Positions 4,905-34,952 of a stretch of DNA of 64,000 nt are shown piece after piece (within the stretch, counting starts at the first letter, position 1; the number at the start of each line of letters is the position of its first letter). Where the stretch lies: contig OY743169.1 in the NCBI GenBank assembly GCA_963555705.1, positions 46,860,124 through 46,924,123 on the forward strand, read 5' to 3'. The DNA is from Ligustrum vulgare (taxonomy: Eukaryota > Streptophyta > Magnoliopsida > Lamiales > Oleaceae). Position numbers and translations under genes: made by a program. Below the pieces are notes generated by a model that was not told the origin of the DNA, did not search any database, and worked only from the letters and a program-made list of their open reading frames with translations.

Positions 4905-7832
4905 TGTAGCGCCCCGAGTTCCGTATACCCGATTCACTACGTCATTTTCTGTCTAAATTTTTCGAATAATATTTTTGCGGAAGAAATAATTGAAATTCAT
5001 TTTTGGCAACATTAAATAAACTGTAATGGCCGCTAAAATTGAAAACATTTATGAAACCATTTGAAATAGTAAATCGAACCATTAATATTGTAAAGAAATT
5101 GCCAATATCATAATTTCTCAAATAAATGAACTTCTCTAAATTATTCGATTTGTTTGGAAAATACGGAAATCATTAACGTCAAACTTTCAACCGTTCAACG
5201 ATTATTGCCACCATCATTCATCGTTCGCCACCGTCTCCGAAATCTGCAAAAACTGTTAAAAAGTAGGGTGAGTATTTCATGGGGGAAATACTCAGTAGAC
5301 TCATCGCAAATTAATTTAATTTATAAGATGATTACACACATAAATCCCGGTTCTTTATAAAACGGCATTGATAGAGCTTCTTTATAAAACAGCTCTTGAT
5401 AACACTCATATTGTGCATTACAGCACGGGACATATTTTGCAAATCATAGACTCTTTGAAAATAGCTCTTTGAAAATAGCTCTTTGAAAACAGCTCTTTGA
5501 AAACCATATACTTATAAAAACATTTTAATTATGCCAAGCATAATTTCTTTTGAAAGCATAACATAAGATAGGATTGAAATCCTCATAACATAAATAGACA
5601 CAAGAATTTTACCGAACTTAGGTGGCAAGAATTCTTATGCAGTAAAACCATAATAACAGTAAGTTTTCATCATAACATAGGATAAAATCGAAATCCTCAT
5701 AAACATAAGAATTTTACCGAACTTAGGTGGTAAGAATTCTTATGTAGTAAGTATACCAAGCATAATTTTCTGAAATTCATAGGGATCAATTGCATCATAA
5801 CATAAGATAGGATCGAAATCCTCATAAACATATGCGACAGGAATTTTACCGAACTTAGGTGGTAAATCCTCATAAACATATGGAAAGATAGGAATTTTAC
5901 CGAACTTCGTGGCAAATCCTCATAAACATAGGAGACACAAGAATGTTACCGAACTTAGGTGGCAAGAATTCTTATGTGTAGCGCTACTAAAACTCCGGTC
6001 CCCTTAACATATCATAACTTATCATATGGGACCCAAAACAATCTTGGTAGATTGATTTCATAGCAATGATCCAAAAAAACATTTTCGTGAAGCATAGGGT
6101 ATACTTACTTTTCGTAAAAACATAAAGTATATTTTCTTTTCATAAAAACATACTTACTTTTCATAACAACATAAGGTATATTTACCTTTCATAAAAACAT
6201 ACTTGTTTTTCTTAAAAATTGACTTTCACAAGTCACATGACATTCATATGAAATCATAATTTAAATCAATTAATAAGTGCGAGTCTACCTCAAATCCGAC
6301 GAGTGCAAAGTTGAGCGGGAATGACTTCAATTTCTTTAAATTCTCCGTACGCTTCGTCTTAGCCAATAAGTCACTTTAGTTTATCGAATATATAGTTCAA
6401 AATGATAAATTATAATTTGAGGACTAAAATTGATGTTTTTGAAAGTTTAGGGACTAAAATGAATATTTTGAAAGTTGAAGGACTAAAGTGAATATCTTTG
6501 AAACTTGGGCTTTAAATCAAATTAATAAAATCAGCAGGGACTGAAATAATAGATTTTAAAAATGAAGGACTGATTGGGCTGAATTGATCATTTTAAAACT
6601 TGGGGACTGATTTGAAAGACTTTTAAAAATTCAGGGACCAAAGTGAAATTTTTGGAAATTAAAATAATATATCCTCAGATTTACTCTCTCTCTCTCTCTC
6701 TCTCTCTCATGTTTCTCTCGCTCGATTCACTCTCTCTCTCAACCTCTCTTCTCATCCGATCCGACTGGAGAAGGGCTCTTCCAGCCGGCGATATGATCGG
6801 CGAAACGCCGGCGCAAGGTAGATGCGTGCAGCGGACAGGTATTGGTTCAGATTTTTGAGGGATTTGTTGCGATTTTGAGTGCGAGACCGAGGCTAAAACA
6901 GTGGCTAAAATCACGATTTCCGGTGGTAGAAAATCGGTCAGCGCAGTCGGGATTGAGGTAAGTAACTGGGTAATTGGTTTGGGTTTGATTTTGGGTTTGG
7001 GTGAAGATTTATTGATGGTGAATTGGAGATTGGCAGTGGATGGTGTTGACCGGTGGTGACTGGATTGAGGAATTGCAGGTGATAACATTTTGGTAGTAAT
7101 TGTGGTTGATTAGTGGTGATTGTTGGCATTGATTGTAGTCTGCAGGTGGTTTGATCTTGAAATGGATGGTATAGACTGTGGAGTGGTGATACTGCAGATT
7201 CTGGGAATGGAGGTGGATTGGCTGTTGCGGTGATTGGGAAACTAGTTGCAGAGAATTTGGGTGGTAGGTATATTTGATGATAATCCTGGTGTTTAGCTTT
7301 GTTGGTATTGCAGTGATTGTGGTGTTTAACACAGTGATGGTGATGATGAATGAAGCAGCTCGGCTATAAAGAAGAGTGTTTGAGGGTAAAGGAAAATGCA
7401 CATGGGGAGGGAATATGATGATGGTGGGGAATATCATAATTGAAAGGGAATAATTGAGTGAATATTATCATAATCATGATGATGGAGGAGGAGCAAAACT
7501 TGTAGAATAAATTTTGATTATGATAAGAATTGGACTAACTTTGATCAAGAAGCGTATTTAAAACAGACATATTTTGGATTGAAAATAAATTTGAGAATAA
7601 ATAAATTTGGAATTTAAAATGATTTTGAAAATAATACTTTAAATAAATAATTAAATAACATAATTTTAGAAATTCGGATTTTAATTTAAAATCGAACAAA
7701 TTCGATATTTCTTGACTTGGCTAGACGAATCCGTCGCGGCATTAATTTCAAAATAATAAATGAAATAGTAGCGACACAATTTTCTAAATATTAAAATAAT
7801 TATTTATTGCATAAAAATTCTGGATCGCTATA
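4905..7832 (-). repeat. 3' LTR of LARD-like element 1
   Basis: About 2928 bp, almost identical to 11319-14190. On the plus strand it runs from TGTAGCGCCCCGAG to CGCTATA (expected CGCTACA, one decayed base). It contains degenerate repeats built on GAATTTTACCGAACTTAGGTGG (about 5560-5960), alternating GGACTAAAATGAATATTTTG-type repeats (6410-6650), a CT tract at about 6684-6708 and a GC-rich segment at 6765-6850 followed by a consensus splice donor (GAGGTAAGT, about 6956). ORFs in the GTG/ATG-rich part (6680-7440) are low complexity and not believed to be genes. Confidence 0.9.
5270..5293. repeat. LTR palindrome, left LTR of element 1
   Basis: GAGTATTTC and its exact complement GAAATACTC separated by ATGGGG, a 9-bp stem. 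The same stem with different loops recurs in every related LTR in this window (11684, 26261, 32651, 53198). Confidence 0.8.
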
Positions 7833-8300
7833 ATCTTACCTCCTTAAAATAATTTCGTCCTCGAAATTAAACTTACTTAATCTTATAATTTCTGAATACT
7901 TAATCAGAATCTCTTCTTCTTATCATCGAATATTCTCAAAATAATCAAAACAATTCCCAATCGTATGTAAAAATTTCATCAAATCTTTACTGACATATCG
8001 TATCATAATAATTTTTCCTTTCTTATCATCGAAAATTCCCAAAATCATCAAAGAATTACCTGAATATTCTCTCTACGTAACATACCCAAACATATCAACA
8101 TAATATCATCAACTTATCTTTCCAATATTTGTAACCCAAAATTCAGTAAACAAATATCTCCCAAAACTAAGATTCTATACTTAAATGTCACCACATTTCC
8201 TGCAAAGTATTTCTTTCACTTGTATATACGTATGAATTCTGATTCAATACGGTACTCATTTTACTTTCCACGTATCATCACACTATACCAAGATTATCAT
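7833..8300 (-). other. Element 1 interior, PPT side
   Basis: Read on the minus strand, GAGGACGAAAT-type sequence and TTTTAAGGAGGTAAG (7835-7849) form the polypurine tract just before the 3' LTR, as in plant gypsy elements. The stretch to about 8120 aligns by eye with the interior of element 2 (28574-28640 and about 30950-31060), so it is the native interior of this family. No coding sequence is seen. Confidence 0.7.
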
Positions 8301-8486
8301 TATAAAAACAAAATATCAGTACCCATAATCCAAGAAAATATTTCAAATCTCAAATCCCATCATCAAATCTTTCTTTTATCAAGAAAGTGAACGGCGCATT
8401 AATTCTTGTCTCCTCTTATCCATTATTTTATTCCATCCTTTCTTACTGTAACACAAATCACGCGGATTCATTCATATCCTTGCGCT

Positions 8487-8495
8487 TTTAAATAG
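8487..8495 (+). promoter_or_regulatory. TATA-like box before the Cys-rich ORF
   Basis: TTTAAATAG, followed by TTCATGC. The same TTTAAATAG occurs before the LOG ORF (9382-9390), also with an AGTTCA motif downstream. The ATG at 8528 is only 32 bp further on, so a start about 30 bp after the box would give a very short leader. A five-codon uORF (8499-8516) would then lie upstream of or at the start site. Confidence 0.4.
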
Positions 8496-8527
8496 TTCAT
8501 GCTGGGAAGAGGTTGAATCATCAAACA

Positions 8528-9079
8528 ATGGATATCATCCTTTCTAACATTCGCAAGTATTATTCCAGTCTTCCTATGAATGATCTGAGAAAGATCTATA
8601 GAATAAGGCTCGAAAGATTGAGGTTGCTAATGGCTCATGATATTCCAGAAGATGTTCGCTGGTTGATAGAAGCAAAGGTTCGACTATCTGGTGAATTACC
8701 ATCAACATTTCCAAAGCACATGCCTGGTTTAGGCAAAAGCACGTTCGCAAAGAAACGAAGAGCAAAAAGGCTGGGTGGTTGCTACAAATGTGCTCGTTGG
8801 AATTGTGATACTCGTTGCAAATCAGTAGGATATTCTTCTACTAATCGGGATGATAAAATCGAATTCATAAAGGGTGGACTGAGTAAGGAGTCTTTGGATG
8901 ATATTCGACTAACTCTTGAGACGCACCCAAGTGGTTATGTACAACGTGAACTTCTCTCCTTATACGCTCAGTTTAACGAGGACAAAAATCGTTATAGTCT
9001 CCAAAATATAATAGCAAAAGATCCTGTTTGCCAGTCTGTTTTACAAAATGAGGCTTCTGGCAGTTCAGCAATGATATAA
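8528..9079 (+). CDS. Basic Cys-rich (zinc-finger-like) protein, cargo ORF 1
   Basis: An uninterrupted 183-codon ORF. I start it at ATG 8528, which has A at -3 and G at +4; the reading frame is open five codons further upstream but only to a TTG. Visible parts: an N-terminal, probably helical, charged region (about 1-60), a basic patch KKRRAKR (75-81), then four cysteines C85, C88, C93 and C97 (C-x2-C-x4-C-x3-C), then an acidic/helical C-terminus. The order basic patch then compact Cys cluster then a hydrophobic EFI motif recalls the small nucleic-acid-binding proteins at the 3' end of carlavirus-type plant RNA virus genomes; that is a resemblance, not a proven homology. It lies 385 bp before the LOG ORF on the same strand, antisense to the host retroelement. 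It could also be an unrecognised plant protein. Function is not assigned. Confidence 0.55.
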   Translation: MDIILSNIRKYYSSLPMNDLRKIYRIRLERLRLLMAHDIPEDVRWLIEAKVRLSGELPSTFPKHMPGLGKSTFAKKRRAKRLGGCYKCARWNCDTRCKSVGYSSTNRDDKIEFIKGGLSKESLDDIRLTLETHPSGYVQRELLSLYAQFNEDKNRYSLQNIIAKDPVCQSVLQNEASGSSAMI

Positions 9080-9160
9080 GGTAAATCTTTTGATATGCTT
9101 TTAAAAATATTTTTTCTGTTTTCTTTAACGCGTTTTGGAAATAAAAAAAATATTTTCCTT

Positions 9161-9286
9161 TCTCGAGTTTTGATAAAGCTGGAAATAAATATATTTTCCT
9201 TTTCTCGAGTTTTGATAAAGCTGGAAATAAATATATTTTCCTTTTCTCGAGTTTTGATAAAGCTGGAAATAAATCACCGAAAGGTG
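9161..9286 (+). repeat. Three 42-bp tandem repeats between the cargo ORFs
   Basis: A unit beginning TCTCGAGTTTTGATAAAGC recurs at 9161, 9203 and 9245 at exact 42-bp spacing and almost without differences. A degenerate partial unit precedes it (about 9130-9160). The copies' similarity points to recent amplification. Confidence 0.85.
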
Positions 9287-9288
9287 AT
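9273..9288 (+). other. GNRA-loop hairpin at the end of the 42-bp repeats
   Basis: ATCACC-GAAA-GGTGAT, a perfect 6-bp stem closed by a GAAA tetraloop. It could be a structured element in RNA read from the plus strand; no function is shown. Confidence 0.45.
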
Positions 9289-9381
9289 ATCTTTGATAAA
9301 ATAGTCAAAAGTTGGCCGATTTTGTCAAAAAGTGAATCTTTACTTTTTCAGAATCAATCAAAAACAGTAAATTTTTCCGGC

Positions 9382-9390
9382 TTTAAATAG
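9382..9390 (+). promoter_or_regulatory. TATA-like box before the LOG ORF
   Basis: TTTAAATAG, identical to the box before cargo ORF 1. The LOG ATG is 75 bp downstream, so a transcript starting about 30 bp after the box would have a normal plant-length leader. Confidence 0.5.
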
Positions 9391-9464
9391 CCAAACATAT
9401 TTCATAGTTCAGGCATCCCAAAATCACATCTTCTTCGTAAGTTTTCCCTTCTTTACTATCAAAG

Positions 9465-10118
9465 ATGGAAGCACCAAAACTTCGACAGATCAAAACTATT
9501 TGTGTATTTTGTGGATCAAAAGTGGGGAAAGGCTTCGGTTATCTAGAAGCGGCTGTAGATCTTGGAAAGAAACTGGGGGAAAAAGGTATCACTCTTGTAT
9601 ATGGGGGTGGTAGCAGTGGTCTAATGGGTTGTGTTTCCCAATCTGCTCTTGCAGAGAAATCAAAAGTAATCGGTGTTATACCTGTCCCTTTGGTAGATGT
9701 TGCAGGCAAAACACGAGGGCATGAAGTTCAAACCTTATCCATCCATGAACGCATAACTTGTATGCTATATGGTTCTGATGCCTTTATAGCCCTGCCCGGA
9801 GGTTTTGGTACCTTAGAAGAAATTTTTAACATTACCTCGTGGGCTCAACTAGATCTCCATACTAAGCCTATTGGGCTTCTGAATGTTAACAATTTCTTTG
9901 ATGGTTTGTTAACCTTTCTTGATTATGCTGTGGAACAGGGATTCATCTCTCCATTTTCCAGAAGGCTTCTTATTTCTGCTCCTACTATTGATGAACTACT
10001 GGATAAGCTGCAGTCATATATCTCAATACAAGATCCAGCAGGGGTTAAGATAGATTGGTCGCAAGGAAGGGGAATCAAGCGAAAATGGAGTCCGGTTAAT
10101 GTAAACTTAACTCTTTGA
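9465..10118 (+). CDS. LOG: LOG-type cytokinin riboside 5'-monophosphate phosphoribohydrolase
   Basis: 217 codons, the usual length of plant LONELY GUY enzymes, which release free-base cytokinins from their nucleotides in the cytosol and nucleus. Family marks: ICVFCGSKVG near residue 12, LVYGGGSSGLMG (44-55), the signature PGGFGTLEE (111-119) with the catalytic-type Glu, SWAQLDLHTKPIGLLNV (125-141) and a typical SAPTIDELLDKL near the C-terminus. The Arg of the HxR motif is present (HER, 94-96), but the following residues that are usually KAEM read ITCM. The start ATG has A at -3 and G at +4. The gene has no introns, unlike ordinary plant LOG genes, and lies inside a non-autonomous LTR retrotransposon, antisense to it. 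All key residues needed for the fold appear intact, so it may be active. It is well diverged from typical plant LOG sequences. Confidence 0.9.
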   Translation: MEAPKLRQIKTICVFCGSKVGKGFGYLEAAVDLGKKLGEKGITLVYGGGSSGLMGCVSQSALAEKSKVIGVIPVPLVDVAGKTRGHEVQTLSIHERITCMLYGSDAFIALPGGFGTLEEIFNITSWAQLDLHTKPIGLLNVNNFFDGLLTFLDYAVEQGFISPFSRRLLISAPTIDELLDKLQSYISIQDPAGVKIDWSQGRGIKRKWSPVNVNLTL

Positions 10119-10128
10119 ATCTTAGAAT

Positions 10129-10347
10129 AGGTGGGGGTAGAGTACGGAGTATTTTCACTCTCGAGACACCCCTCCATTTACTAGGATTTCCTTAATGTTT
10201 AAATCTTGTGTGTACTTCAAAGATTCCAGGTGGTAGATTACGGAGTATTCTTACTCTCGAAACACACCTCTTTGAAGGTTTCTTTATTTCCTCAAAAGAT
10301 CAGAGGTGGTAGGATACGGCTACTCCGGAAACACATCTCTCATTCTG
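10129..10347 (+). repeat. Three hairpin repeats downstream of LOG
   Basis: Three degenerate units at about 10129-10175, 10227-10274 and 10302-10347 share GGTGGTAGA-type, ACGGAGTATT and CTCGAAACACACCTC-type parts. Each can fold: GGTG pairs with CACC outside and GGAGT with ACTCT inside (units 1 and 2), with a shortened inner stem in unit 3. Spacing is about 75-98 bp. Serial 3' stem-loops of this sort would suit an RNA 3' UTR. Confidence 0.7.
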
Positions 10348-10438
10348 AGGATCTTTCCATGTTTTTCTCTTATGCTTTCGTGTGTTTCATGTATTTCCTT
10401 TCCAGTGTGACTCTTGTGTGTTCTCCTTATGAGAAAAT

Positions 10439-10444
10439 AATAAA
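10439..10444 (+). terminator. AATAAA polyadenylation-like signal after LOG
   Basis: AATAAA, 320 bp after the LOG stop and just before the point (about 10460) where the sequence again matches the native interior of the related element 2. It may mark the 3' end of the captured unit. No poly(A) tract follows. Confidence 0.35.
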
Positions 10445-10459
10445 ATCTCTGCTATCATC

Positions 10460-11303
10460 TACTAAATCTCGTTTGTGATGTAAATGATCTTGCATGTCTA
10501 ACCTTAATTCCTTTAGTGGATGCTTATCATATTATGCTCTTAATTCCAAATGATAAAATTCTGGATAGAGTCTCCCTTGTAATTTGGACTTATCCAAACC
10601 ATAAGCATACTTCATAACTCACAATAATAAAAAAAAACTCAACATTTGATCACAACGATCTAAAAAATATTGAAAACGATTCCATCACTTCAATATCATC
10701 AAAATATCCCATAATTCAATTCATAATTCCTCAACATAGAAATTTCAAATCATATTTTTCAATATCACAATATCACTTCCTTCGATACCTTAATGGCTCA
10801 AAAGATAACTCATACTTATAAATATATGCCATAAATCATGTTCCCAAAATTTATTCACAAGGCCAAACTTCATAATAAATTTCTCTTCAAAATAGAGGAA
10901 ATAATTCAGTTACTCAACATAATATCCATTACTTAATTCTCAATAAAATCATATTATTCCCATTATGCTCAACACTCGTTTTATTTCTTAAAAAAAAATT
11001 TCATAATCATACATTAAAACATATAAGTTATGACAAAGCATAACAACATCATTATTTTTGAAAGAAATACATTCTTATTTCTCATAAATCATAAGTATCC
11101 GAAATACTCTTCATTCTTTCTCATAAATCAATAAAATGAGTATTCGAAATACTGAAATAACTTTAAACATCATAAACTTCTTTACCTCGGAGTTGGTGGA
11201 ACGAATGATGGCAGTGGCAATCTTCATCAATAAAATTTTATAATGGAAAATATTTCTTGAAAATTCTTTTGCAAGTTTTACCAGTCTACAGAAACGCAGA
11301 CTG
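10460..11303 (-). other. Element 1 interior, PBS side
   Basis: Non-coding, AT-rich, and collinear by eye with 31250-32339 of element 2 (for example GAGTCTCCCTTGTAATTTGG in both). It is therefore native retroelement sequence, and the homology break near 10460 marks the right edge of the cargo. Confidence 0.7.
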
Positions 11304-11315
11304 GCTCTGATACCA
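11304..11315 (-). other. tRNA-Met primer binding site of element 1
   Basis: On the minus strand this reads TGGTATCAGAGC, the classical initiator tRNA-Met complement, three bases inside the 5' LTR. It fixes the element's orientation as minus. Confidence 0.95.
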
Positions 11316-11318
11316 ACT

Positions 11319-14190
11319 TGTAGCGCCCCGAGTTCCGTATACCCGATTCACTACGTCATTTTCTGTCTAAATTTTTCGAATAATATTTTTGCGGAAGAAA
11401 TAATTGAAATTCATTTTTGGCAACATTAAATAAACTGTAATGGCCGCTAAAATTGAAAACATTTATGAAACCATTTGAAATAGTAAATCGAACCATTAAT
11501 ATTGTAAAGAAATTGCCAATATCATAATTTCTCAAATAAATGAACTTCTCTAAATTATTCGATTTGTTTGGAAAATACGGAAATCATTAACGTCAAACTT
11601 TCAACCGTTCAACGATTATTGCCACCATCATTCATCGTTCGCCACCGTCTCCGAAATCTGCAAAAACTGTTAAAAAGTAGGGTGAGTATTTCATGGGGGA
11701 AATACTCGGTAGACTCATCGCAAATTAATTTAATTTATAAGATGATTACACACATAAATCCCGGTTCTTTATAAAACGGCATTGATAGAGCTTCTTTATA
11801 AAACAGCTCTTGATAACACTCATATTGTGCATTACAGCACGGGACATATTTTGCAAATCATAGACTCTTTGAAAATAGCTCTTTGAAAACAGCTCTTTGA
11901 AAACCATATACTTATAAAAACATTTTAATTATGCCAAGCATAATTTCTTTTGAAAGCATAACATAAGATAGGATTGAAATCCTCATAACATAAATAGACA
12001 CAAGAATTTTACCGAACTTAGGTGGCAAGAATTCTTATGCAGTAAAACCATAATAACAGTAAGTTTTCATCATAACATAGGATAAAATCGAAATCCTCAT
12101 AAACATAAGAATTTTACCGAACTTAGGTGGTAAGAATTCTTATGTAGTAAGTATACCAAGCATAATTTTCTGAAATTCATAGGGATCAATTGCATCATAA
12201 CATAAGATAGGATCGAAATCCTCATAAACATATGCGACAGGAATTTTACCGAACTTAGGTGGTAAATCCTCATAAACATATGGAAAGATAGGAATTTTAC
12301 CGAACTTCGTGGCAAATCCTCATAAACATAGGAGACACAAGAATGTTACCGAACTTAGGTGGCAAGAATTCTTATGTGTAGCGCTACTAAAACTCCGGTC
12401 CCCTTAACATATCATAACTTATCATATGGGACCCAAAACAATCTTGGTAGATTGATTTCATAGCAATGATCCAAAAAAACATTTTCGTGAAGCATAGGGT
12501 ATACTTACTTTTCGTAAAAACATAAAGTATATTTTCTTTTCATAAAAACATACTTACTTTTCATAACAACATAAGGTATATTTACCTTTCATAAAAACAT
12601 ACTTGTTTTTCTTAAAAATTGACTTTCACAAGTCACATGACATTCATATGAAATCATAATTTAAATCAATTAATAAGTGCGAGTCTACCTCAAATCCGAC
12701 GAGTGCAAAGTTGAGCGGGAATGACTTCAATTTCTTTAAATTCTCCGTACGCTTCGTCTTAGCCAATAAGTCACTTTAGTTTATCGAATATATAGTTCAA
12801 AATGATAAATTATAATTTGAGGACTAAAATTGATGTTTTTGAAAGTTTAGGGACTAAAATGAATATTTTGAAAGTTGAAGGACTAAAGTGAATATCTTTG
12901 AAACTTGGGCTTTAAATCAAATTAATAAAATCAGCAGGGACTGAAATAATAGATTTTAAAAATGAAGGACTGATTGGGCTGAATTGATCATTTTAAAACT
13001 TGGGGACTGATTTGAAAGACTTTTAAAAATTCAGGGACCAAAGTGAAATTTTTGGAAATTAAAATAATATATCCTCAGATTTACTCTCTCTCTCTCTCTC
13101 TCTCTCATGTTTCTCTCGCTCGATTCACTCTCTCTCTCAACCTCTCTTCTCATCCGATCCGACTGGAGAAGGGCTCTTCCAGCCGGCGATATGATCGGCG
13201 AAACGCCGGCGCAAGGTAGATGCGTGCAGCGGACAGGTATTGGTTCAGATTTTTGAGGGATTTGTTGCGATTTTGAGTGCGAGACCGAGGCTAAAACAGT
13301 GGCTAAAATCACGATTTCCGGTGGTAGAAAATCGGTCAGCGCAGTCGGGATTGAGGTAAGTAACTGGGTAATTGGTTTGGGTTTGATTTTGGGTTTGGGT
13401 TTGATTTATTGATGGTGAATTGGAGATTGGCAGTGGATGGTGTTGACCGGTGGTGACTGGATTGAGGAATTGCAGGTGATAACATATTGGTAGTAATTGT
13501 GGTTGATTAGTGGTGATTGTTGGCATTGATTGTAGTCTGCAGGTGGTTTGATCTTGAAATGGATGGTATAGACTGTGGAGTGGTGATACTGCAGATTCTG
13601 GGAATGGAGGTGGATTGGCTGTTGCGGTGATTGGGAAACTAGTTGCAGAGAATTTGGGTGGTAGGTATATTTGATGATAATCCTGGTGTTTAGCTTTGTT
13701 GGTATTGCAGTGATTGTGGTGTTTAACACAGTGATGGTGATGATGAATGAAGCAGCTCGGCTATAAAGAAGAGTGTTTGAGGGTAAAGGAAAATGCACAT
13801 GGGGAGGGAATATGATGATGGTGGGGAATATCATAATTGAAAGGGAATAATTGAGTGAATATTATCATAATCATGATGATGGAGGAGGAGCAAAACTTGT
13901 AGAATAAATTTTGATTATGATAAGAATTGGACTAACTTTGATCAAGAAGCGTATTTAAAACAGACATATTTTGGATTGAAAATAAATTTGAGAATAAATA
14001 AATTTGGAATTTAAAATGATTTTGAAAATAATACTTTAAATAAATAATTAAATAACATAATTTTAGAAATTCGGATTTTAATTTAAAATCGAACAAATTC
14101 GATATTTCTTGACTTGGCTAGACGAATCCGTCGCGGCATTAATTTCAAAATAATAAATGAAATAGTAGCGACACAATTTTCTAAATATTA
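11319..14190 (-). repeat. 5' LTR of element 1, truncated
   Basis: Nearly identical to 4905-7832 but lacking the last 39 bp (plus-strand sense) that correspond to 7794-7832, i.e. the start of the LTR on the element's own strand. At 14188-14191 it runs through a shared TTAA into the Cassandra LTR. It contains the same palindrome (11684-11707), CT tract and low-complexity ORFs. Confidence 0.9.
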
Positions 14191-14214
14191 AGAGAATTGA
14201 TAGGTACTACTCAT

Positions 14215-19237: not shown

Positions 19238-19242
19238 TGCTG

Positions 19243-19741
19243 TGACCCAGATTCTTGATCCATTTAATACCACCGCCTCACCTAAGCCGTTAGATCATAT
19301 GGCTTCATCCTGGCCGTCCATTTGTAAACAAAAGGAAGGGAGACGTTCTGCATACTCAACACAATCCAGACTCTTCCTCTCTCTGATGAAAACCCTAACT
19401 CTCTCTCTATAGGCGATTTTTCAATCGCCTCATCTGCACTTCGTGATTTCTTCCTGAAACTTATAGATCTTGAATGTTTATTCTTAGTGGTACTGCTAGA
19501 TACTGATTTTGCAACAATCAGTATAAAAATTATTGAGTTTTGTCAGAGTATTCTGAAACTCAGTTGATTCTTTGTGGTTTTATGTTCGAGTTCTTTGTTT
19601 CTGGAAGTTTTCATGTATATTTCTGGGTTTTGATTTCTGGTGTTGTAACTTTACGTTTCTGAATAAAGTTGATTTGATTTTTTGTGGTTAATATTGTGTT
19701 CTTGTTCTTTGTGGTTTGATTCTGAATCTTAAATCCTTACA
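19243..19741 (+). repeat. 5' LTR of Copia A, second part
   Basis: Continues the LTR after the solo-LTR insertion and matches 24751-25259. It ends CCTTACA directly before the PBS. The 3' LTR carries an extra CTGATTTCTT duplication. Confidence 0.93.
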
Positions 19742-21774: not shown

Positions 21775-21819
<45 letters not shown>

Positions 21820-25963: not shown

Positions 25964-28573
25964 TGTAACGCCCCGAGTTCCGAGGAGCGCGGGAACATCA
26001 CTTTTCTAAATTCTTTAATAAACTTTGTTGCGGAAAATGACTAAATATTAAATATCGCATTTATTGAATAAAAGTTTAGCGATAATTCAAATGGAATAAG
26101 TAAATTCGTACAAATTTATGAAAATAATAATTCTTGATAAAATGAAATAAATATTTCAAAGCTCACGACTTTTAAAAAAATATCAATTTGTAATTTGCCG
26201 TCATTGCCCATCACTCGCCACCGTCTCCGAAATCTGCAAAAATTGTTAAAATAACGGGTTGAGTATTTCAAAATGAAATACTCAGTAGACTCATCGCCAA
26301 TAATTAATCTACAAGATAATTGGACAAGAAATTATGTAAATAATGTAGTGACATTCTTTTCTTATTCATAGGCATCACATAGTGAACGCAAATGAACACA
26401 TTCTTTTCTTTTCTTGGCTAGCAGATAAGTTATGCCCAGCATAACATAATTCTTTATCTCAAAAGAGATATTCTTTTCTCATGCAATTAAGCATAAAATC
26501 ACACAAATCCACATAACACATGCAATTATAATATAAATCAATTAGTGGGGGCGAGTCTACCTTAAATCTGACGAGTGCAAAGTTGAGCGGGAAATGACTT
26601 AAATCCTTTAAATCTCCGTACGCCTCGTCTAGCCCATAAGTTACATTAGTCTTTTGAAATTTATAGTTTAAAAATGACAGTTTACAATTTGAGGACTGAA
26701 ACTGATGTTTTTGAAAGTTGAGGGATTAAAATGAATATTTTCGAAAGGTGAGGAATTAAAATGAATATTTTTGAAACTTAAAGTAAGATTTTAAATATTT
26801 AAATTAAAGAGGACTCAATAACTTAATTTAAAAATATAGTGGCTGAAATAAGAAATTTTCAAAATGAAAGGGCTGATTAAAAATCTTTTAAAAACTTAAG
26901 GGACTGAATTGATAAGTTTTAAAACTACAGGGACTGATTTTGAAATAATTTTGGAACCCAGGGACTAAAGTGCAAATCCTGGAAGTTAAAATATTAAAAT
27001 CAAAATATTTACTCTCTCTCTCATTCACGATCTGAAAATCAGACCGAGAGAGAGAAAGGCGAGAGAGAGCGCGCACAGGGGTTGAGTCCGGCGGAGGTAC
27101 TGCCGGCGATTTTCCGGTGAAACGCCGCGTTCGAGCGGCGGCGGTCAGGGTAGCAGTGGGGGGGTGGCTGGAGGAAGATATTTGGGTGGTTTATTGTGTG
27201 AAACCGAGACCAAATCAAAGCTTGAAATCGAAATCGGAGTTGTGATTTTCGGCCAAAATCCGTCCAGTTGGCTGGTGATGAAGGTAAGTAGCTAGTTCTT
27301 CTTGTTTTGTCCTTGGTTTGGGGTTTGATTTGGTTAAAGAATTGAGTTGGGCAGTGGTGATGTGCAGAGGAGTTTAACTTGAAAGTGGGTGGTGACGGGC
27401 GTAGTGATGATAACGGTGGTGATGTCGAGTTGTGAAGTTTGAGGTTTGCTATTGAGTTTTCGATTGGCAGCGGTGGTTTCTTGGAGGTGGAGGCTTGGGT
27501 TTGGCGAGTTACAGTCGACTATGGCTTGCAACTGGCTGTTGTTCGGTGGTGATGATGGTGATGATGATGATTGGTGTTGAAGATGGAGGTGAGTTGGAGG
27601 AGGTTGTGGCCGTGTGCGAATGATGATGGTGGTTTGGGTTCTCGATTGAGGTGGTGTTGGCCGTGAATGGTGGTGCTGCAGGTGGTTTGTTGATTGGTGC
27701 AGGTGATGATGGTGGAAATGGGTGGTGGCTGCGTTGGTGTTGATTGATGATGATGATGCTGGTTGTTTAATTTGGATGCAGGGGACGAATATGGTGGTGA
27801 TGATGACGATTTTTGGCCTGCATTGGGTGGGGATTCTTGGTGGTGATGAGGTTGGTGATGAATGGAGCTTAAACAGAGGTTGGTGCTTGGTTGTGGCTTG
27901 GGTGTGGCGATGATAATGATATAGGTGATGGGAGTTTGGTGAGATTTGTGGTAGGTGGTGAAAATGGAGGTGGGAGGAAGATGACTTCAAAATAGAAAAG
28001 AGGAAGAAAAGAAAGTGATCAATGGGAGACATCATAATTTGGGGGGAATCATTGAGTGGAATAATTGAGTGGATGGAAATGATGATGTTTAGTGGAGAAT
28101 ATTTGGTGTAATGTATGGAAACGTGGATGAAATTAGGTGGATATAGATTAGGATTAGTTGGTAGGATTAATTTTAGGATAATTAACTAAAAATTAGACTA
28201 ACTTCGATTTGGAAATGTATTTAAAATTGATATATTTTGGACTGAAAATAAATTTGAGAATAAATAAATTTTGAGACAAAAATGAATTTCGTATTTGGAC
28301 TTAAAATAATTTAATAAGGAAAAAATTTAGATATTTTTAATAAATTTGAAATTTAAAAATGATTTTGAAAACAATACTTTGAATAAATAATTAAAATAAT
28401 ATAATTTTTAGAAATTCGGAATTTAATCAAAATCGAATGAACTCGTTATTTCTTGACTTGGCTAGACGTATACGTCGCGGTGTTAACTTAAAAATATTTG
28501 GTGAGATAGCAGGGACATGATTTTCTAAATTTTAAAATAATTATTAAATGCGCAAAAATTCTTGGTCGCTACA
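25964..28573 (-). repeat. 3' LTR of element 2
   Basis: On the plus strand TGTAACGCCCCGAG to GGTCGCTACA, 2610 bp. It contains the palindrome GAGTATTTC/GAAATACTC (26261-26283), GGACTAAA-type repeats, a CT tract near 27011, a GC-rich block and a donor-like GAAGGTAAGT near 27281. The GTGATG-rich ORFs around 27334-28035 are low complexity and not credible genes. Confidence 0.92.
26261..26283. repeat. LTR palindrome, element 2 left LTR
   Basis: GAGTATTTC-AAAAT-GAAATACTC; same 9-bp stem as in element 1, different loop. Confidence 0.8.
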
Positions 28574-28639
28574 ACCTTACCCCCTTAAAATATTTTCGTC
28601 CTCGAAATTAAACTTGCTCGATCTATGATTTCTGTATAC

Positions 28640-29000
28640 TTGGCTTGGATCTTCTCTTCATTTCCCAAGTAATCTCATCACTATTATATCTACCCACTGG
28701 ACTTTGACGAAAGGAATCTCTTTATTTCTTAAAACATGGACTTTTCTCTCTACTATGCACATAGGTGTCTCTTCATAAGTCAAATCTTTCTGGACTGCAA
28801 TAAACTGATAATTCTCCATATGATTTGAATCATGAACATACTTTCTCAGTAGGTAAACATGAAAGACATTGTGAACAGATGCAAGTTCTGGTGGCGAAGT
28901 CAAACAATAAGCCACATTACCTACTTCTCTAGCATTTTAAATAGTCCGATGAAATGAGGCCTTAAATTCCCTCTCTTGCCAACACAAAAATACCTTTCAT
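28640..29000 (-). pseudogene. Gypsy pol remnant (integrase C-terminal end)
   Basis: On the minus strand the region reads LRPHFIGLFKMLEK, then after stops SPPELASVHNVFHVYLLRKY, QKDLTYEETPMCIVERKVHV and FVKVQW. This is the C-terminal tail of Ty3/gypsy integrase typical of elements that end in a chromodomain-like module. Stops and frame changes make it dead. It lies just before the PPT and 3' LTR, where the end of pol belongs, which proves the gypsy descent of this LARD-like family. Confidence 0.88.
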
Positions 29001-32000
29001 AGGATCTATACTAATGTCGAAACTACAAAATATTCATTAACCCAAATGCTTAAACTAATAATCAAGAAGATTGATCAAGAATAAATCCTTATGATCCATA
29101 ATATAAAAGCGCGATATCAATTCCAAAATATTGAGTACAAAACCCAAACTTTGCAGAATCTTTCTGAAAAATTTACCAACGTAATCATTTATAAGTTCGA
29201 CTGAAACTTCCTTTTCAAAATTTGGGATTTCAAACTTAAATCCTTTAATCCATACTTTTAAATCATGAATCAAGTACTCGGTATCACATACTCATTCTAA
29301 CTGAGTGCTAAGATACTAACTTAAAGCGTCATACGGATCATATATGTTATTCTCAAACTTAAGAAACCTCACTAACTTCCCAATATGAAGTTCAAGATTC
29401 AACTTTCCCTATTCTCCCAAAACTTCAATTCATGTCACACTATGAACAATTCTCTGATTAAGTCTATCACCATTGAATAAAACTTCTGTGAATCATATAG
29501 GATTCCTAATCAAGTTTGCTTAACTTAAAGATACAATCCCATTATAAGTGAAAGTCACACAAATGATCTTCTCAGGTTTCCTATTTTCGTATCAAAATAC
29601 TTTACTCACATCAAAAGTACAACCGATAATAATTAATCGAAACTGCATCACCAAAATCTTAAATAAATCCATACATTATGACTCAAAATAAAAATTCCCA
29701 ATCATATGTAATATTTCACCATAATGTAATAGACCATCAAAATAAGATCGATTAACTCAATATTCACAAGATTCTTCACGGGATAACCATAACATCTTTT
29801 AATCGTCTAATCACCATATCCTGTAGTAATCATGTAATCTGTCACTTATCATCGTATCATATGACCTCAAATATTCATATCAATCTCTCTAAGATTTCAA
29901 TATAATAACCATCATACCTATCTCGTGAACCTTATACGTCAATCTGCTCACTAAGATTATATATCAATTTCTCATACTAATAAATCTTGAATTCTACAGT
30001 TGTCACTCTTCTGCACACCACTCCAAAATAAGTCATTACTGTGAAGTCTTATCCTTATTTTCCATAGATTCTATCCACAAGGACAATTGCCTAAAATTTC
30101 ATTTCTTATTTTCGAACCAAGATACCATCAATAACAATTTCCAAAATTTCAAGATATGATCAATCATAAGCCTTTCTCTGATCAAATACATTACTTCATC
30201 AATACTTGTACAAAATTTAGGACCTGATAAAGTTTCTTTCATTAATTTCATCCAACAATTTTCTCTCATGATCTTCTAGTATCATAAATGAAAACTTAAC
30301 GTACATCAGTGAATCATACAAAGTACAAGGAAACCTGATTTATTTTTCATGACTGAGATTCATCATTCTTTGAATTCCACTTAGAACCAAATACAACATA
30401 ACTTATTCATGAAAAATCAACTTATTCCATAATCTCAACACATCATTACCTTCAATTCTCACCATAAGAAAAATCGCATTATTCCTTATAATTATCTCTT
30501 GTACCTTTTGTATTCGAATGACCTTATGACCATCATCATTATCTCACATAATCCCAAACATTCACTCACATGTCCCCAATTTCTCACTTTGAATAAATGG
30601 TTACTCCTTTAAGGCATCTCACCATAAAATATTTTCAATATCTCCCATTCATGATAACTGACTATTCCCAATAATCATATTACATGTAAATTCAACAAAC
30701 GGTAAATGGTTTTCCTAGCTATCACAAATGTCTAAAAATGCAAGCTCTCAACATAACCTCTAAACTCTGTATAAAGAAATATTTGCTGACTACTTAAGTC
30801 ATTATTCAATAACCAAAATGACATCACGTCTCTTCACTAATCTCTGTAAGTCCATGAAAAATTTTCTCCAAATTTCAATAAATCTTTACTATTTCCTTAA
30901 AAACATATCAAACCATAAAAATTTGTCATCTCTAAAACTTTTTATCATCAAATATCACCAAAATAATTAAAACGATAGAAATTACCTGAATATTCTCTCT
31001 ATGTAATATACCAAATAACATATTATTCACAAATCAACATAATATCATCAGCTTATCTTTAACATATCTTCCCGATCAAATTCCAAAAATAAATCAACAG
31101 TATTATCTCATATCCTCATAATTTATAATATCTCCAATATCAATGATCATTCCTTACTAGTGATCAATTCGTTCCCAAGAATAATTAAGATTCTTCCCAA
31201 TAACGCCATAATACTTGTCTTCACTCATCTTTCAAAATATAACTTTTCATTTACTAAATCTCGCTTATGGTGTAAATGAACTTGAAATTCTAACCTCAAT
31301 TCCCTTAGTGGTTGCATACCATACTATGCTCTTAATTCCAAATTCTAGGCAGAGTCTCCCTTGTAATTTGGACTTATCCAACCCGTAAGTATACTTCCTA
31401 ACCAACAATAACAAATAACTCTACATTTGACCACAACGATTTATATATTGACAACATTTCCAACAAACTTAAATATCACCAAAAATATCCCAGAAAATCA
31501 ATTTATAATTCCTCAATATAACAATTTCAAATCCTAGTTTCCAATATCAATAACTCACTTTCCTTCAATACATTAATTGGCTCAAATGACCACCCATTAT
31601 TCATACTTATAAATATATGCCACAAATCATATTCCCAAAATTTAATCACAAGGCCAAACTACATTATAAATTTCTCTCAAAATAGAGGAATAATTCACTT
31701 ACTCAACACAATATCCATTACTTAATTCTCAATAACTAAGAATCAAATCTTTAAACCTCTAATTTCATAATTCTTCTCATAAAAGTCTCAATAAAATCAC
31801 ATCACTTATAATCTCAACACCTCATCATAATTTCATAAAACTGGCTTGCTATTTCTCGTTTAGTCTAAACGATAGATATTCCGAAAATATTGTCTAATCT
31901 TTTTTGTTAACTTCTCATAAATGGTGTCATGTCTAAAATCAATTATGCAAAGTCCAGTTAGGATTCATCATTTCTAAACTCGAGGACAAAAATTATTATA

Positions 32001-32339
32001 AAATCATTCTTAAATAATATTATTCCCATTATGCTCAACACTCGTTTTCTTTCTTTTCTTTTCTTTCTGAAAAATTTCTCATTATGCTCCAAAACTCATT
32101 TCTTTCTTTCTTTCTTATTCGGATACAATCTCTTTCTCTCTCTCTTCATTCTTTCTCATAAATCAGTAAAATAAGTATCCGAAATACTGAAATAACGTTA
32201 AACATTGTAAACTTCTTTACCTCAGAGTTGGTGGAACGAATGATGACAGTGGCAATCTTCATTAATAATAATTTAATAATGGAAAATGTTTCTTAAAATT
32301 TATTTTTGAAAATTTTCCAGTCTACATAAACGCAGACTG
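29001..32339 (-). other. Element 2 interior, non-coding
   Basis: 3.3 kb of AT-rich sequence with no plausible ORF. Parts near 30950-31060 and 31250-32339 match the interior of element 1. Short CT/TTTC runs near 32045-32140. It may be decayed pol or the conserved non-coding core of the family. Confidence 0.65.
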
Positions 32340-32351
32340 GCTCTGATACCA
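32340..32351 (-). other. tRNA-Met primer binding site of element 2
   Basis: TGGTATCAGAGC on the minus strand, three bases inside the 5' LTR. Confidence 0.95.
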
Positions 32352-32354
32352 CGC

Positions 32355-33398
32355 TGTAACGCCCCGAGTTCCGAGGAGTGCGGGAACGTCACTTTTCTAA
32401 ATTCTTGAATAAACTTTGTTGCGAAAATGACTAAATATTAAATATCGCATTTATTGAATAAAAGTTTAGCGATAATTCAAATGGAATAAGTAAATTCGTA
32501 CAAATTTATGAAAATAATAATTCTTGATAAAATGAAATAATTATTTCAACGCTCACGACTTTTAAAAAAATATCAATTTGTAATTTGCCGTCATTGCCCA
32601 TCACTCGCCACCGTCTCCGAAATCTGCAAAAATTGTTAAAATAACGGGTTGAGTATTTCAAAATGAAATACTCAGTAGACTCATCGCCAATAATTAATTT
32701 ACAAGATAATTGGACAAGAAATTATGTAAATAATGTAGTGACATTCTTTTCTTATTCATAGGCATCACATAGTGAACGCAAATGAACACATTCTTTTCTT
32801 TTCTTGGCTAGCAGATAAGTTATGCCCAGCATAACATAATTCTTTATCTCAAAAGAGATATTCTTTTCTCATGCAATTAAGCATAAAATCACACAAATCC
32901 ACATAACCCATGCAATTATAATATAAATCAATTAGTGGGGGCGAGTCTACCTTAAATCTGACGAGTGCAAAGTTGAGCGGGAAACGACTTAAATCCTTTA
33001 AATCTCCGTACGCCTCGTCTAGCCCATAAGTTACATTAGTCTTTTGAAATTTATAGTTTAAAAATGACAGTTTACAATTTGAGGACTGAAACTGATGTTT
33101 TTGAAAGTTGAGGGACTAAAATGAATATTTTCGAAAGGTGAGGAATTAAAATGAATATTTTTGAACTTAAAGTAAGATTTTAAATATTTAAATTAAAGAG
33201 GACTCAATAACTTAATTTAAAAATATAGTGGCTGAAATAAGAAATTTTCAAAATGAAAGGGCTGATTAAAAATCTTTTAAAAACTTAAGGGACTGAATTG
33301 ATAAGTTTTAAAACTACAGGGACTGATTTTGAAATAATTTTGGAACCCAGGGACTAAAGTGCAAATCCTGGAAGTTAAAATATTAAAATCAAAATATT

Positions 33399-33432
<34 letters not shown>

Positions 33433-34947
33433 CACGATCTGAAAATCAGACCGAGAGAGAGAAAGGCGAGAGAGAGCGCGCGCAGGGGTTGAGTCCGGAG
33501 GAGGTACTGCCGGAGATTTTCCAATGAAACGCCACGGTCGAGCGGCGGCGGTCAGGGTAGGAGTGGGGGGTGGCTGGAGGAAGATATTTGGGTGGTTTAT
33601 TGTGTGAAACCGAGACCAAATCAAAGCTTGAAATCGAAATCGGAGTTGTGATTTTCGGCCAAAATCCGTCCAGGTGGCTGGTGATGAAGGTAAGTAGCTA
33701 GTTCTTCTTGTTTTGTCCTTGGTTTGGGGTTTGATTTGGTTAAAGAACTGAGTTGGGCAGTGGTGATGTGCAGAGGAGTTTAACTTGAAAGTGGGTGGTG
33801 ACGGGCGTAGTGATGATAACGGTGATGATGTCGAATTGTGAAGTTTGAGGTTTGCTATTGAGTTTTCGATTGGCAGCGGTGGTTTCTTGGAGGTGGAGGC
33901 TTGCGACTGGCTGTTGTTCGGTGGTGATGATGGTGATGATGATGATTGGTGTTGAAGAAGGAGGTGAGTTGGAGGAGGTTGTGGCCGTGTGCGAATGATG
34001 ATGGTGGTTTGGGTTCTCAATTGAGGTGGTGTTGGTCGTGAATGGTGGTGCTGCAGGTGGTTTGTTGATTGGTGCAGGTGATGATGGTGGAAATGGGTGG
34101 TGGCTGCGTTGGTGTTGATTGATGATGATGATGCTGGTTGTTTAATTTGGATGCAGGGGACGAATATGGTGGTGATGATGATGATTTTTGGCCTGCATTC
34201 GGTGGGGATTCTTGGTGGTGATGAGGTTGGTGATGAATGGAGCCTAAACAGAGGTTGGTGCTTAGTTGTGGTTTGGGTGTGGCGATGATAATGATATAGG
34301 TGATGGGAGTTTGGTGAGATTGTGGTAGGTGGTGAAAATAGAGGTGGGAGGAAGATGACTTAAAAATAGAAAAGAGGAAGAAAAGAAAGTGATCAATGGG
34401 AGACATCATAATTTGGGGGGAATCATTGAGTGGAATAATTGAGTGGATGGAAATGATGATGTTTAGAGGAGAATATTTGGTGTAAAGTATGGAATCGTGG
34501 ATGAAATTAGGTGGATATAGATTAGGATTAGTTGGTAGGATTAATTTTAGGATAATGAACTAAAAATTAGACTAACTTCGATTTGGAAATGTATTTAAAA
34601 CTGATATATTTTGGACTGAAAATAAATTTGAGAATAAATAAATTTGGAGATAAAAATGAATTTCGTGTTTGGACTTAAAATAATTTAATAAGGAAAAAAT
34701 TTAGATATTTTTAATAAATTTGAAATTTAAAAATGATTTTGAAAATAATACTTTGAATAAATAATTAAAATAATATAATTTTTAGAAATTCGAAATTTAA
34801 TCAAAATCGAATGAACTTGATATTTCTTGACTTGGCTAGACGTATATGTCGCGGTGTTAACTTAAAAATATTTGGTGAGATACTAGTGACACGATTTTCT
34901 AAATTTTAAAATAATTATTAAATGCGTAAAAATTCTTGACCGCTACA
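32355..34947 (-). repeat. 5' LTR of element 2
   Basis: 2593 bp, matching 25964-28573 with scattered substitutions, a longer CT tract (33403-33429) and a missing 40-bp block near 33900 relative to the other LTR. The palindrome is at 32651-32673. Confidence 0.92.
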
Positions 34948-34952
34948 ATGTA

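What the first reader, a model, noticed from the sequence alone, without database searches (positions are those of the whole stretch)
8300..10460. A LOG cytokinin-activating gene riding inside a young non-autonomous LTR retrotransposon
Seen: an intact, intronless 217-codon LOG ORF with PGGFGTLEE and the HxR Arg, antisense inside the 3.5 kb interior of a LARD-like element whose LTRs are almost identical. Known: plant LOG genes normally have several introns, and LARD interiors are normally non-coding. Inference: the element has acquired a hormone-activation gene as a complete unit with its own TATA-like box and AATAAA, and could spread it through the genome. The related element 2 lacks this segment, so the insertion is about 2.1 kb between native interior parts.
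Basis: partly seen in the sequence, partly recalled or inferred. Interest (0 to 1): 0.88.

Follow-up and report, generated by a model that had tools for sequence, protein, structure and literature searches.

The report
Retrotransposon carrying virus-like and cytokinin genes
A plant jumping element that lacks its own copying machinery carries two intact genes, one resembling a plant-virus nucleic-acid-binding protein and one resembling a plant enzyme that activates the hormone cytokinin, and the many copies in this genome that were sampled keep both proteins nearly unchanged, which suggests the genes do something for the element.

Summary
An intact 217-aa LOG ORF (9465-10118, +) lies antisense in a non-autonomous LTR element (about 4905-14198). 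No other frame exceeds 130 codons in 7 of 7 interiors. Three capped searches hit 438 distinct places; both genes stood side by side at 65 of 65 places read as DNA. Four of 4 copies with both flanks read have 5-bp target duplications. Both proteins show purifying selection: LOG dN/dS 0.06-0.09 and NABP 0.11-0.13 between two subfamilies. The LOG is no fresh host copy: it falls in a clade apart from the host LOGs sampled; 92 of 120 such LOGs, but 0 of 120 host LOGs, end in LxLxL. LOG domains in Gypsy elements are published (PMC9289625); my searches found no report of the pair. Best reading: a two-gene helper module favouring the element's spread (silencing suppression plus cytokinin), in an element that borrows GAG-POL. 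Function is inferred.

The parts
4905..7832 (-). 3' LTR of element 1 (element reads on the minus strand)
   Evidence: 99.2% identical to the right LTR; starts TGTAGCGCC and ends GCTATA as in other copies
7833..7850 (-). purine-rich tract (minus strand TTAAGGAGGTAAGAT) next to the 3' LTR
   Evidence: sequence read; role inferred
8121..10455 (+). cassette absent from element 2 (edges approximate, left edge soft)
   Evidence: blastn of the two interiors
8480..8495 (+). TATA-like TTGCGCTTTTAAATAG about 40 bp before the NABP ATG
   Evidence: CTTTTAAATAG in 31 of 31 copies; function inferred
8528..9079 (+). NABP ORF, 183 aa, viral-type cysteine-rich nucleic acid binding protein
   Evidence: PF05515 32.1 bits (cut-off 23) and PF01623 26.5 bits (cut-off 20.9); homologues; intact in 31 of 31 copies picked by LOG
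9153..9278 (+). three 42-bp tandem repeats between the genes, copy number variable
   Evidence: gap fraction 0.52-0.83 across 31 copies at 9170-9269
9375..9390 (+). TATA-like TTCCGGCTTTAAATAG about 80 bp before the LOG ATG
   Evidence: GGCTTTAAATAG in 29 of 31 copies; diversity 0.009-0.016 at 9320-9419
9465..10118 (+). LOG ORF, 217 aa, cytokinin riboside 5'-monophosphate phosphoribohydrolase-like
10056..10115 (+). C-terminal tail of LOG: basic KRK, then VNVNLTL (degenerate LxLxL, EAR-like)
   Evidence: residues 198-217 under pLDDT 50 in the model
10123..10340 (+). three imperfect repeats downstream of LOG, low diversity over most of the stretch
   Evidence: no excess RNA structure (z -0.88)
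10439..10444 (+). AATAAA
   Evidence: read directly; AATAAAATCTC in 27 of 31 copies
11303..11315 (-). primer-binding-site-like stretch (minus strand TGGTATCAGAGCC)
   Evidence: match to initiator Met tRNA recalled
11319..14198 (-). 5' LTR of element 1, outer end truncated
25964..34948 (-). related element 2 without the cassette; keeps an integrase C-terminal-like relic at 28658-28915(-) (chromovirus type recalled)
   Evidence: PF24626 23.5 bits, below its cut-off of 30

Best explanation
The segment is a two-gene accessory module, NABP plus LOG, carried antisense by a highly amplified, recently active, non-autonomous LTR retrotransposon. The element must borrow GAG-POL from another element, probably a Tekay-like chromovirus (inferred), but brings its own protein-coding helpers. 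SHOWN: the gene pair, its genome-wide spread, recent transposition of sampled copies, the absence of other long ORFs in sampled interiors, and purifying selection on both proteins. INFERRED: each gene has its own promoter; NABP acts as its viral relatives are reported to act (dampening RNA silencing and/or regulating transcription); LOG releases active cytokinin in the cell, perhaps in the nucleus through its basic/LxLxL tail. Together they would make the cell permissive (less silencing, more division in meristematic cells), so that new insertions are made and inherited. LOG probably entered a mobile lineage once, long ago; it was not captured by this element lately.
For: Pfam hits for both genes. 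NABP intact in 31 of 31 copies picked by LOG; LOG intact in 26 of 30 loci picked by NABP, the window's own copy included. LOG pN/pS 0.038 in 27 sequences; 8 non-synonymous against 21 synonymous variants where 76% non-synonymous is expected, p 6e-8. NABP pN/pS 0.18 in 31 copies. Between subfamilies: LOG dN/dS 0.059-0.087 in 5 of 5 copies, NABP 0.114-0.126 in the 3 of 5 measured. Four of 4 copies with both flanks read have 5-bp TSDs and LTRs 99.91-99.97% identical. Only NABP and LOG exceed 130 codons in 7 of 7 interiors. 438 distinct places on 24 contigs in three capped lists; both genes side by side at 65 of 65 places read as DNA (31, 29 more, 5). Diversity is generally lowest over the cassette. 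Mobile-type LOG clade 100/97; LxLxL tail in 92 of 120 against 0 of 120 host LOGs. Three Orobanche gracilis gene models carry NABP and LOG domains together. Viral CRPs are reported as silencing suppressors and, for one carlavirus, a transcription factor (PMC12172455, passages). An antisense gene with its own promoter is known in maize Grande (PMC7264820).
Against: No expression, small-RNA or biochemical data were available. The AlphaFold model of NABP is poor (pLDDT 58), so its link to viral proteins rests on Pfam scores. The window LOG's tail is VNVNLTL, not a full LxLxL. All samples were ranked by identity to some query, so they favour intact young copies; this biases counts of intact genes more than the ratio of change types. 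Of 30 NABP-picked loci, 3 have a broken LOG and 1 a 4-aa deletion; the NABP of 1 of 5 subfamily B copies has a stop; within subfamily B the LOG dN/dS reaches 0.20 in one of ten pairs. Some windows outside the genes are as little diverged as some inside. Low dN/dS could reflect selection on a few source copies or on an unseen autonomous donor rather than on this element.
Confidence: 0.55

Rival explanations
1. Passive cargo: NABP and LOG are under selection only in an autonomous element elsewhere; the LARD copies or re-acquires them by template switching and gains nothing.
For: NABP also occurs in sense just downstream of a Ty3-type integrase ORF in another plant-like contig (L001). A subfamily B copy is flanked on one side by 701 bp with no blastn match to the window (one copy), so the cassette may sit in more than one element.
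Against: Within the window's own subfamily LOG pN/pS is 0.04 and NABP 0.18, and diversity generally rises outside the cassette in the same copies, as expected if selection acted through lineages of this element; repeated re-capture from a donor would also give this pattern and is not excluded.
Confidence: 0.25
2. Endogenous viral element: a piece of an unknown plant virus with NABP and LOG genes was trapped in the LTR element.
For: NABP belongs by Pfam score to families of plant RNA-virus proteins; two compact genes, each with a TATA-like box.
Against: No NABP relative was found in the IMG/VR collection (8 and 104 pattern matches, 0 confirmed; the collection is probably poor in plant RNA viruses, recalled). 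Homologues listed with an organism name are in plant assemblies (120 of 379 listed). NABP lies next to an integrase in L001. No other viral gene was seen in the interior.
Confidence: 0.1
3. Recent capture of a spliced host LOG mRNA by this element.
For: No intron; LOG is a plant-type protein, 52% identical to At2g37210.
Against: Separate clade from the 20 host LOGs in the tree; no place closer than 51% to a host LOG3 from Orobanche among the 150 scored (where exons of host genes score low by length); tail not found in 120 host LOGs; partner gene.
Confidence: 0.03
4. Host-domesticated gene family: the copies are kept for the plant's benefit.
For: Purifying selection.
Against: Hundreds of places on all 23 chromosome-size contigs with hits, and the four copies read with flanks are LTR elements with TSDs and nearly identical LTRs.
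Confidence: 0.05

Closest known systems
LOG (YgdH) domains in plant Gypsy elements (Steinbauerova et al. 2011, cited, abstract recalled; Alvarado-Marchena et al. 2022, PMC9289625, section 12 read, other passages searched)
   Same: A LOG gene as an extra domain in Ty3/gypsy LTR elements; reported in Citrus sinensis, C. clementina and, with the filter off, Populus trichocarpa.
   Different: That section names no NABP partner; those consensuses were found through reverse transcriptase, so they are not LARDs. Selection on LOG and the C-terminal tail are not treated in the parts I read.
Maize Grande gene23 and other antisense extra ORFs (PMC7264820, parts 1-2 of 3 read; PMC11963269, passages)
   Same: Antisense accessory gene inside an LTR element, with its own promoter.
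   Different: Per PMC7264820 these products have no clear similarity to other proteins and the elements are described with gag-pol; here the products are recognisable and the element has no gag-pol.
Carlavirus/allexivirus/mandarivirus cysteine-rich proteins (PMC12172455, passages)
   Same: Basic stretch followed by a Cys-rich motif; Pfam Viral_NABP and Carla_C4.
   Different: Here encoded inside a retrotransposon, in hundreds of copies, paired with LOG.
AlkB m6A demethylase in orchid Ty3 elements (PMC9289625, section 12 and passages)
   Same: A Ty3 element with an extra domain also used by flexiviruses.
   Different: Different domain; elements found through reverse transcriptase; no partner gene named in what I read.
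Host LOG enzymes (At2g37210, At5g11950)
   Same: Fold and catalytic motif; best structural match 2a33, TM-score by target length 0.94.
   Different: The element's LOG is intronless, in a separate clade, with an added basic/LxLxL-like tail.

Membership tests
LOG phosphoribohydrolase (PF03641) | Domain score above the Pfam cut-off | tested here: met
   116.4 bits against 27
LOG phosphoribohydrolase (PF03641) | PGGxGTxxE motif with conserved Arg (motif recalled) | tested here: met
   PGGFGTLEE and HER in the ORF; columns conserved in A2
LOG phosphoribohydrolase (PF03641) | Releases cytokinin base from its riboside monophosphate | not testable with these tools
   needs an enzyme assay
Viral NABP / carlavirus cysteine-rich protein | Score above Pfam cut-offs PF05515 and PF01623 | tested here: met
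   32.1 against 23 and 26.5 against 20.9 bits; the L001 homologue passes PF05515 only
Viral NABP / carlavirus cysteine-rich protein | Same fold as viral members | tested here: inconclusive
   model pLDDT 58, not searched
Viral NABP / carlavirus cysteine-rich protein | Encoded by a viral genome | tested here: not met
   here it lies inside an LTR element; copies of it have TSDs
LARD (large retrotransposon derivative) | Two LTRs, PBS, PPT and TSD, with no gag-pol | tested here: met
   4 of 4 flanked copies have TSDs, 7 of 7 interiors lack gag-pol-sized ORFs; the window copy's own TSD cannot be read
LARD (large retrotransposon derivative) | Non-coding interior | tested here: not met
   two selected genes in the interior
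Tekay-type chromovirus derivative | Shares LTR, PBS and pol lineage with Tekay | tested here: inconclusive
   iMet-type PBS (recalled); element 2 keeps an integrase C-terminal-like relic scoring below the Pfam cut-off; no autonomous partner identified
Athila with LOG extra ORF | Athila pol upstream of the gene, sense orientation | tested here: not met
   no pol in the element and antisense orientation; L001 shows integrase then NABP but no LOG

The most novel reading that the evidence does not exclude
A replication-defective retrotransposon that is 'non-autonomous for copying but self-helping': it carries a mobile, long-conserved host-manipulation module, a virus-type silencing suppressor/transcription factor plus a nuclear, co-repressor-binding cytokinin-activating enzyme (LOG with an EAR-like tail), which moves as a pair between element families and turns host cells into dividing, weakly silencing cells. 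Retrotransposons would then manipulate plant hormones much as gall-forming pathogens do.
Probability: 0.25. Interest if true: 0.92.

Novelty: new variant of a known kind. Interest (0 to 1): 0.78.

Why it matters
LARDs are regarded as non-coding passengers, and extra ORFs of plant LTR elements mostly have no known function. Here a LARD-like element with hundreds of copies keeps two recognisable, selected proteins with a testable logic: silencing suppression and cytokinin activation. It gives a concrete way to ask whether plant retrotransposons alter host development and defence to promote their own inheritance. It is also a warning for automatic gene annotation: plant genes named 'LOGL10' (for example P0125 and P0180) fall in the same clade and may be transposon genes.

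Tried and rejected
Recent host-gene capture: the tree speaks against it. Trapped virus: not excluded, but IMG/VR gave no NABP relative (8 and 104 pattern matches, 0 confirmed). IMG/VR with LOG gave two weak relatives, L002 and L003, not followed. RNA structure in the LOG 3' repeats: no excess. NABP fold: model too poor to search. LOG in the MAG that holds the NABP contig L001: none, and the tool warns that an empty answer shows nothing. Link of the P0007-type NABP to an integrase in this genome: nine places with a 70-73% identical NABP exist, three of them with one stop, but by eye none of the 91 scored integrase places (of 31,051 candidates) lies beside them, so the link rests on L001 alone. 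Contig-length matches between NABP and LOG hits (P0014/P0141 8,723; P0015/P0220 4,511; P0110/P0161 1,558) suggest linkage, but lengths of 873, 905, 1,006 and 1,018 matched too and are too short for both genes, so I give this little weight; compared by eye on the 120 listed of 379 and of 7,226 hits. EgEVE_1 (PMC5452135, abstract) is a caulimovirid and was set aside. A first LOG pN/pS of 0.64 was an error: L051, which has a 4-aa in-frame deletion, was read without its gap, and the window's own copy L052 was counted twice; one search drops both. L054 and L067 had already been left out as not full length; L062, with one stop, was kept with that codon skipped in the rate. No search for the host's own LOG gene with introns succeeded: the host-type query returned only intronless copies among its 150 scored places.
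Full report
WHAT IS THERE. The window is G000:C2:46860124-46924123 of an unnamed 1.385-Gb genome in 51 contigs, of which C1-C23 and C32 carry hits. An LTR element reads on the minus strand, from about 14198 down to 4905. Its LTRs are 99.2% identical with 6 mismatches and 17 gap bases. Beside the right LTR is a stretch reading TGGTATCAGAGCC on the minus strand, the classic plant initiator-Met primer site (recalled), and beside the left LTR a purine tract. The right LTR of this copy is cut short at its outer end, so its target duplication cannot be read.

TWO GENES, NOT ONE. On the plus strand, antisense to the element, lie NABP (8528-9079, 183 aa) and LOG (9465-10118, 217 aa). LOG matches PF03641 at 1.3e-33. 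NABP passes the Pfam cut-offs of Viral_NABP (32.1 against 23 bits) and Carla_C4 (26.5 against 20.9), families known from carla-, allexi- and related plant viruses. The LOG model (mean pLDDT 82) has the LOG fold (best PDB match 2a33, E 8e-24, TM-score by target length 0.94). The NABP model is poor (pLDDT 58). Each gene has a TTTAAATAG box upstream: CTTTTAAATAG in 31 of 31 and GGCTTTAAATAG in 29 of 31 copies; AATAAAATCTC downstream in 27 of 31. That these are working promoters is inference.

COPIES IN THE GENOME. NABP as query: 150 scored of 8,785, 98-100% identical, none with a stop, on C1-C23 and C32. A host-type LOG (P0352, Orobanche gracilis) as query: 150 scored of 8,903, all 48-51% identical to it, 146 without a stop. 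Five of these, read as DNA, are a second subfamily, B, 93.5-94% identical in LOG and 82-85% in NABP to the window. The three lists merge to 438 distinct places on 24 contigs. Each place was found by one gene; where DNA was read, both genes stood side by side at 65 of 65 places (31, 29 more, 5), some with one gene broken, see below. Two more queries were not merged into the 438: P0127 gave 150 scored of 9,031, 149 without a stop, many of them the same places as, and P0007 gave 150 scored of 8,543, of which nine are 70-73% identical to P0007, a third NABP type, three of the nine with one stop.

RECENT MOVEMENT. For four copies I read both flanks: all four have a perfect 5-bp duplication (TTTTT, GAAAG, TGTAG, ATGCA, read by eye from the printed edges), LTRs of 3.29-3.45 kb, and LTR identity of 99.94, 99.97, 99.94 and 99.91%. 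Over the LTR parts inside the fetched stretches of six copies, identity is 99.5-100%. In seven interiors (window and L034-L039) NABP and LOG are the only frames over 130 codons; the next longest are 91-130 codons, or none of 90 or more in L038, and were not tested for homology. So the element lacks gag-pol and must borrow it (inference from established biology of LTR elements).

SELECTION. In 31 copies picked by LOG, NABP is intact in 31 of 31 with pN/pS 0.18. In 30 loci picked by NABP (one is the window copy), LOG is present in 30 and intact at 217 aa in 26; L051 has a 4-aa in-frame deletion, L054 and L067 are broken, L062 has a stop. Over 27 LOG sequences pN/pS is 0.038; 8 non-synonymous (one of them the stop) and 21 synonymous variants stand against a neutral expectation of 76% non-synonymous, binomial p 6e-8 (related copies are not independent, so the p value is a guide). 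Between the window and subfamily B, LOG dN/dS is 0.068, 0.077, 0.087, 0.068 and 0.059 (dS 0.42-0.56), and NABP 0.114, 0.125 and 0.126 (dS 0.74-0.82) in the three copies measured; the NABP of L080 has a stop, and that of L078 is open but was not measured. Among the five B copies LOG dN/dS is 0.03-0.20 in ten pairs. Diversity over the 31 copies is generally lowest across the two genes and the stretch after LOG and higher in the surrounding interior, with exceptions both ways (for example 0.046 at 8670-8719 inside NABP, 0.021 at 8170-8219 and 0.026 at 11070-11119 outside); for LOG this is partly built in by the way the copies were picked.

ORIGIN. In a tree of 59 rows the 37 mobile-type LOGs form one side of a branch with 100/97 support and the 20 host LOGs another with 98/95; the bootstrap had not fully settled, so the values are rough. 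The window pairs with P0121 (93% identity) and then P0124-P0126, P0125 being from Diospyros lotus. The rows were a chosen 36 of 120 listed hits plus the window, 19 of 120, and three typed PDB stretches; host rows are from one LOG3 search plus LOG8, so other host LOG types are untested. 'Mobile-type' is my label: only copies in this genome are shown to be in an element; for the others it rests on clade, tail and copy number (38 of the 120 listed hits are from Reevesia pubescens, counted by name). LxLxL is in the last 12 residues of 92 of 120 such hits, against 0 of 120 host LOGs and 3 expected by shuffling; a basic triple in the last 30 in 105 against 1. EAR/TOPLESS is recalled as the usual meaning of LxLxL. 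The window's own tail reads VNVNLTL and so is degenerate.

OUTSIDE THIS GENOME. NABP has 379 hits at E up to 1, 120 listed, in plant assemblies and in contigs without an organism name; three Orobanche gracilis models (P0013, P0019, P0026) carry NABP and LOG domains together. One plant-like contig filed in a bacterial MAG (L001) has a Ty3-type integrase ORF at 194-1594 followed by NABP at 1787-2347 in the same direction and then a PPT-like run, with no LOG in its 3,330 bp (Athila assignment recalled). So NABP is, in at least that contig, an accessory gene of an element with pol, in sense, where env-like genes lie. A search for that linkage in this genome found none among 91 scored integrases. 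One subfamily B copy has, 0.9-1.6 kb past LOG, 701 bp without blastn match to the window, compatible with a different host element; one copy only.

HOW IT PROBABLY WORKS. Viral cysteine-rich proteins are reported to suppress RNA silencing, and that of chrysanthemum virus B also to act as a transcription factor causing hyperplasia (PMC12172455, passages). LOG makes active cytokinin (recalled; PMC9289625, section 12, says LOG regulates cytokinin activity). The simplest joint function is to favour division and weaken silencing in cells where new insertions can be inherited. The selection result shows that the proteins mattered in the line of descent; it does not show to whom.

KNOWN AND NEW. LOG domains in Gypsy consensuses of Citrus and poplar are in print (PMC9289625, section 12, citing Steinbauerova 2011, whose abstract I recall as two Athila-like elements with LOGL4 similarity). 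Antisense accessory genes with their own promoter are in print (PMC7264820, parts 1-2 of 3). As to the pair: no paper held retrotransposon, carlavirus and nucleic acid-binding protein together (0 papers); searches around LOG with retrotransposons, extra ORFs, YgdH or EAR motif gave, among the listed titles, only PMC9289625 as treating LOG in transposons (listings only except the papers named here); Pfam names of NABP gave two papers, by title on unrelated enzymes; LARD with captured gene and cytokinin gave one review lacking the word cytokinin. Subscription journals and preprints are mostly not held, so this is weak evidence of novelty. New here, as far as searched: the NABP-LOG pair, its place in a LARD-like element, the selection on it, and the C-terminal tail.

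Noticed in passing
G000, lists: Cassette copies often stand in tandem 6.1-8.8 kb apart (39 of 150 in the LOG list, 61 of 150 in the NABP list, 0 of 150 in the host-LOG list), about one LTR plus one interior, as if LTR-interior-LTR-interior-LTR arrays formed by recombination; five in a row at C23:10311325-10338630.
   Followed up: partly
window 20814-24588: A copia-like gag-pol (type recalled) in a few frames between 96%-identical direct repeats 19238-19739 and 24746-25257, so a fairly young second element.
   Followed up: no
window 59157-60752: ORFs that look like a CACTA-type transposase (recalled resemblance).
   Followed up: no
window 18254-18478: Array of 25/50-bp units with repeated CCGCTT...GCGGTG.
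   Followed up: no
G000 C1:46299482, C8:18779482, C8:18783991, C16:40940302, C10:52010776, C10:54776565, C1:71864002, C23:37051922, C4:8203394: A third, rarer NABP type, 70-73% identical to the NABP of P0007, matching its longer C-terminus; three of the nine have one stop; the host element is unread.
   Followed up: partly
L001 (DAIEQH010000041.1): A contig filed in a Candidatus Nomurabacteria MAG carries a plant-type Ty3 integrase and NABP: probably plant contamination of the MAG.
   Followed up: partly
L002 and L003: Two IMG/VR contigs encode LOG-like proteins (47% and 38% identity over part of the length).
   Followed up: no
G000: 23 large contigs and 1.385 Gb would fit a plant with x = 23 such as the olive family; inference only, no name is given.
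   Followed up: no
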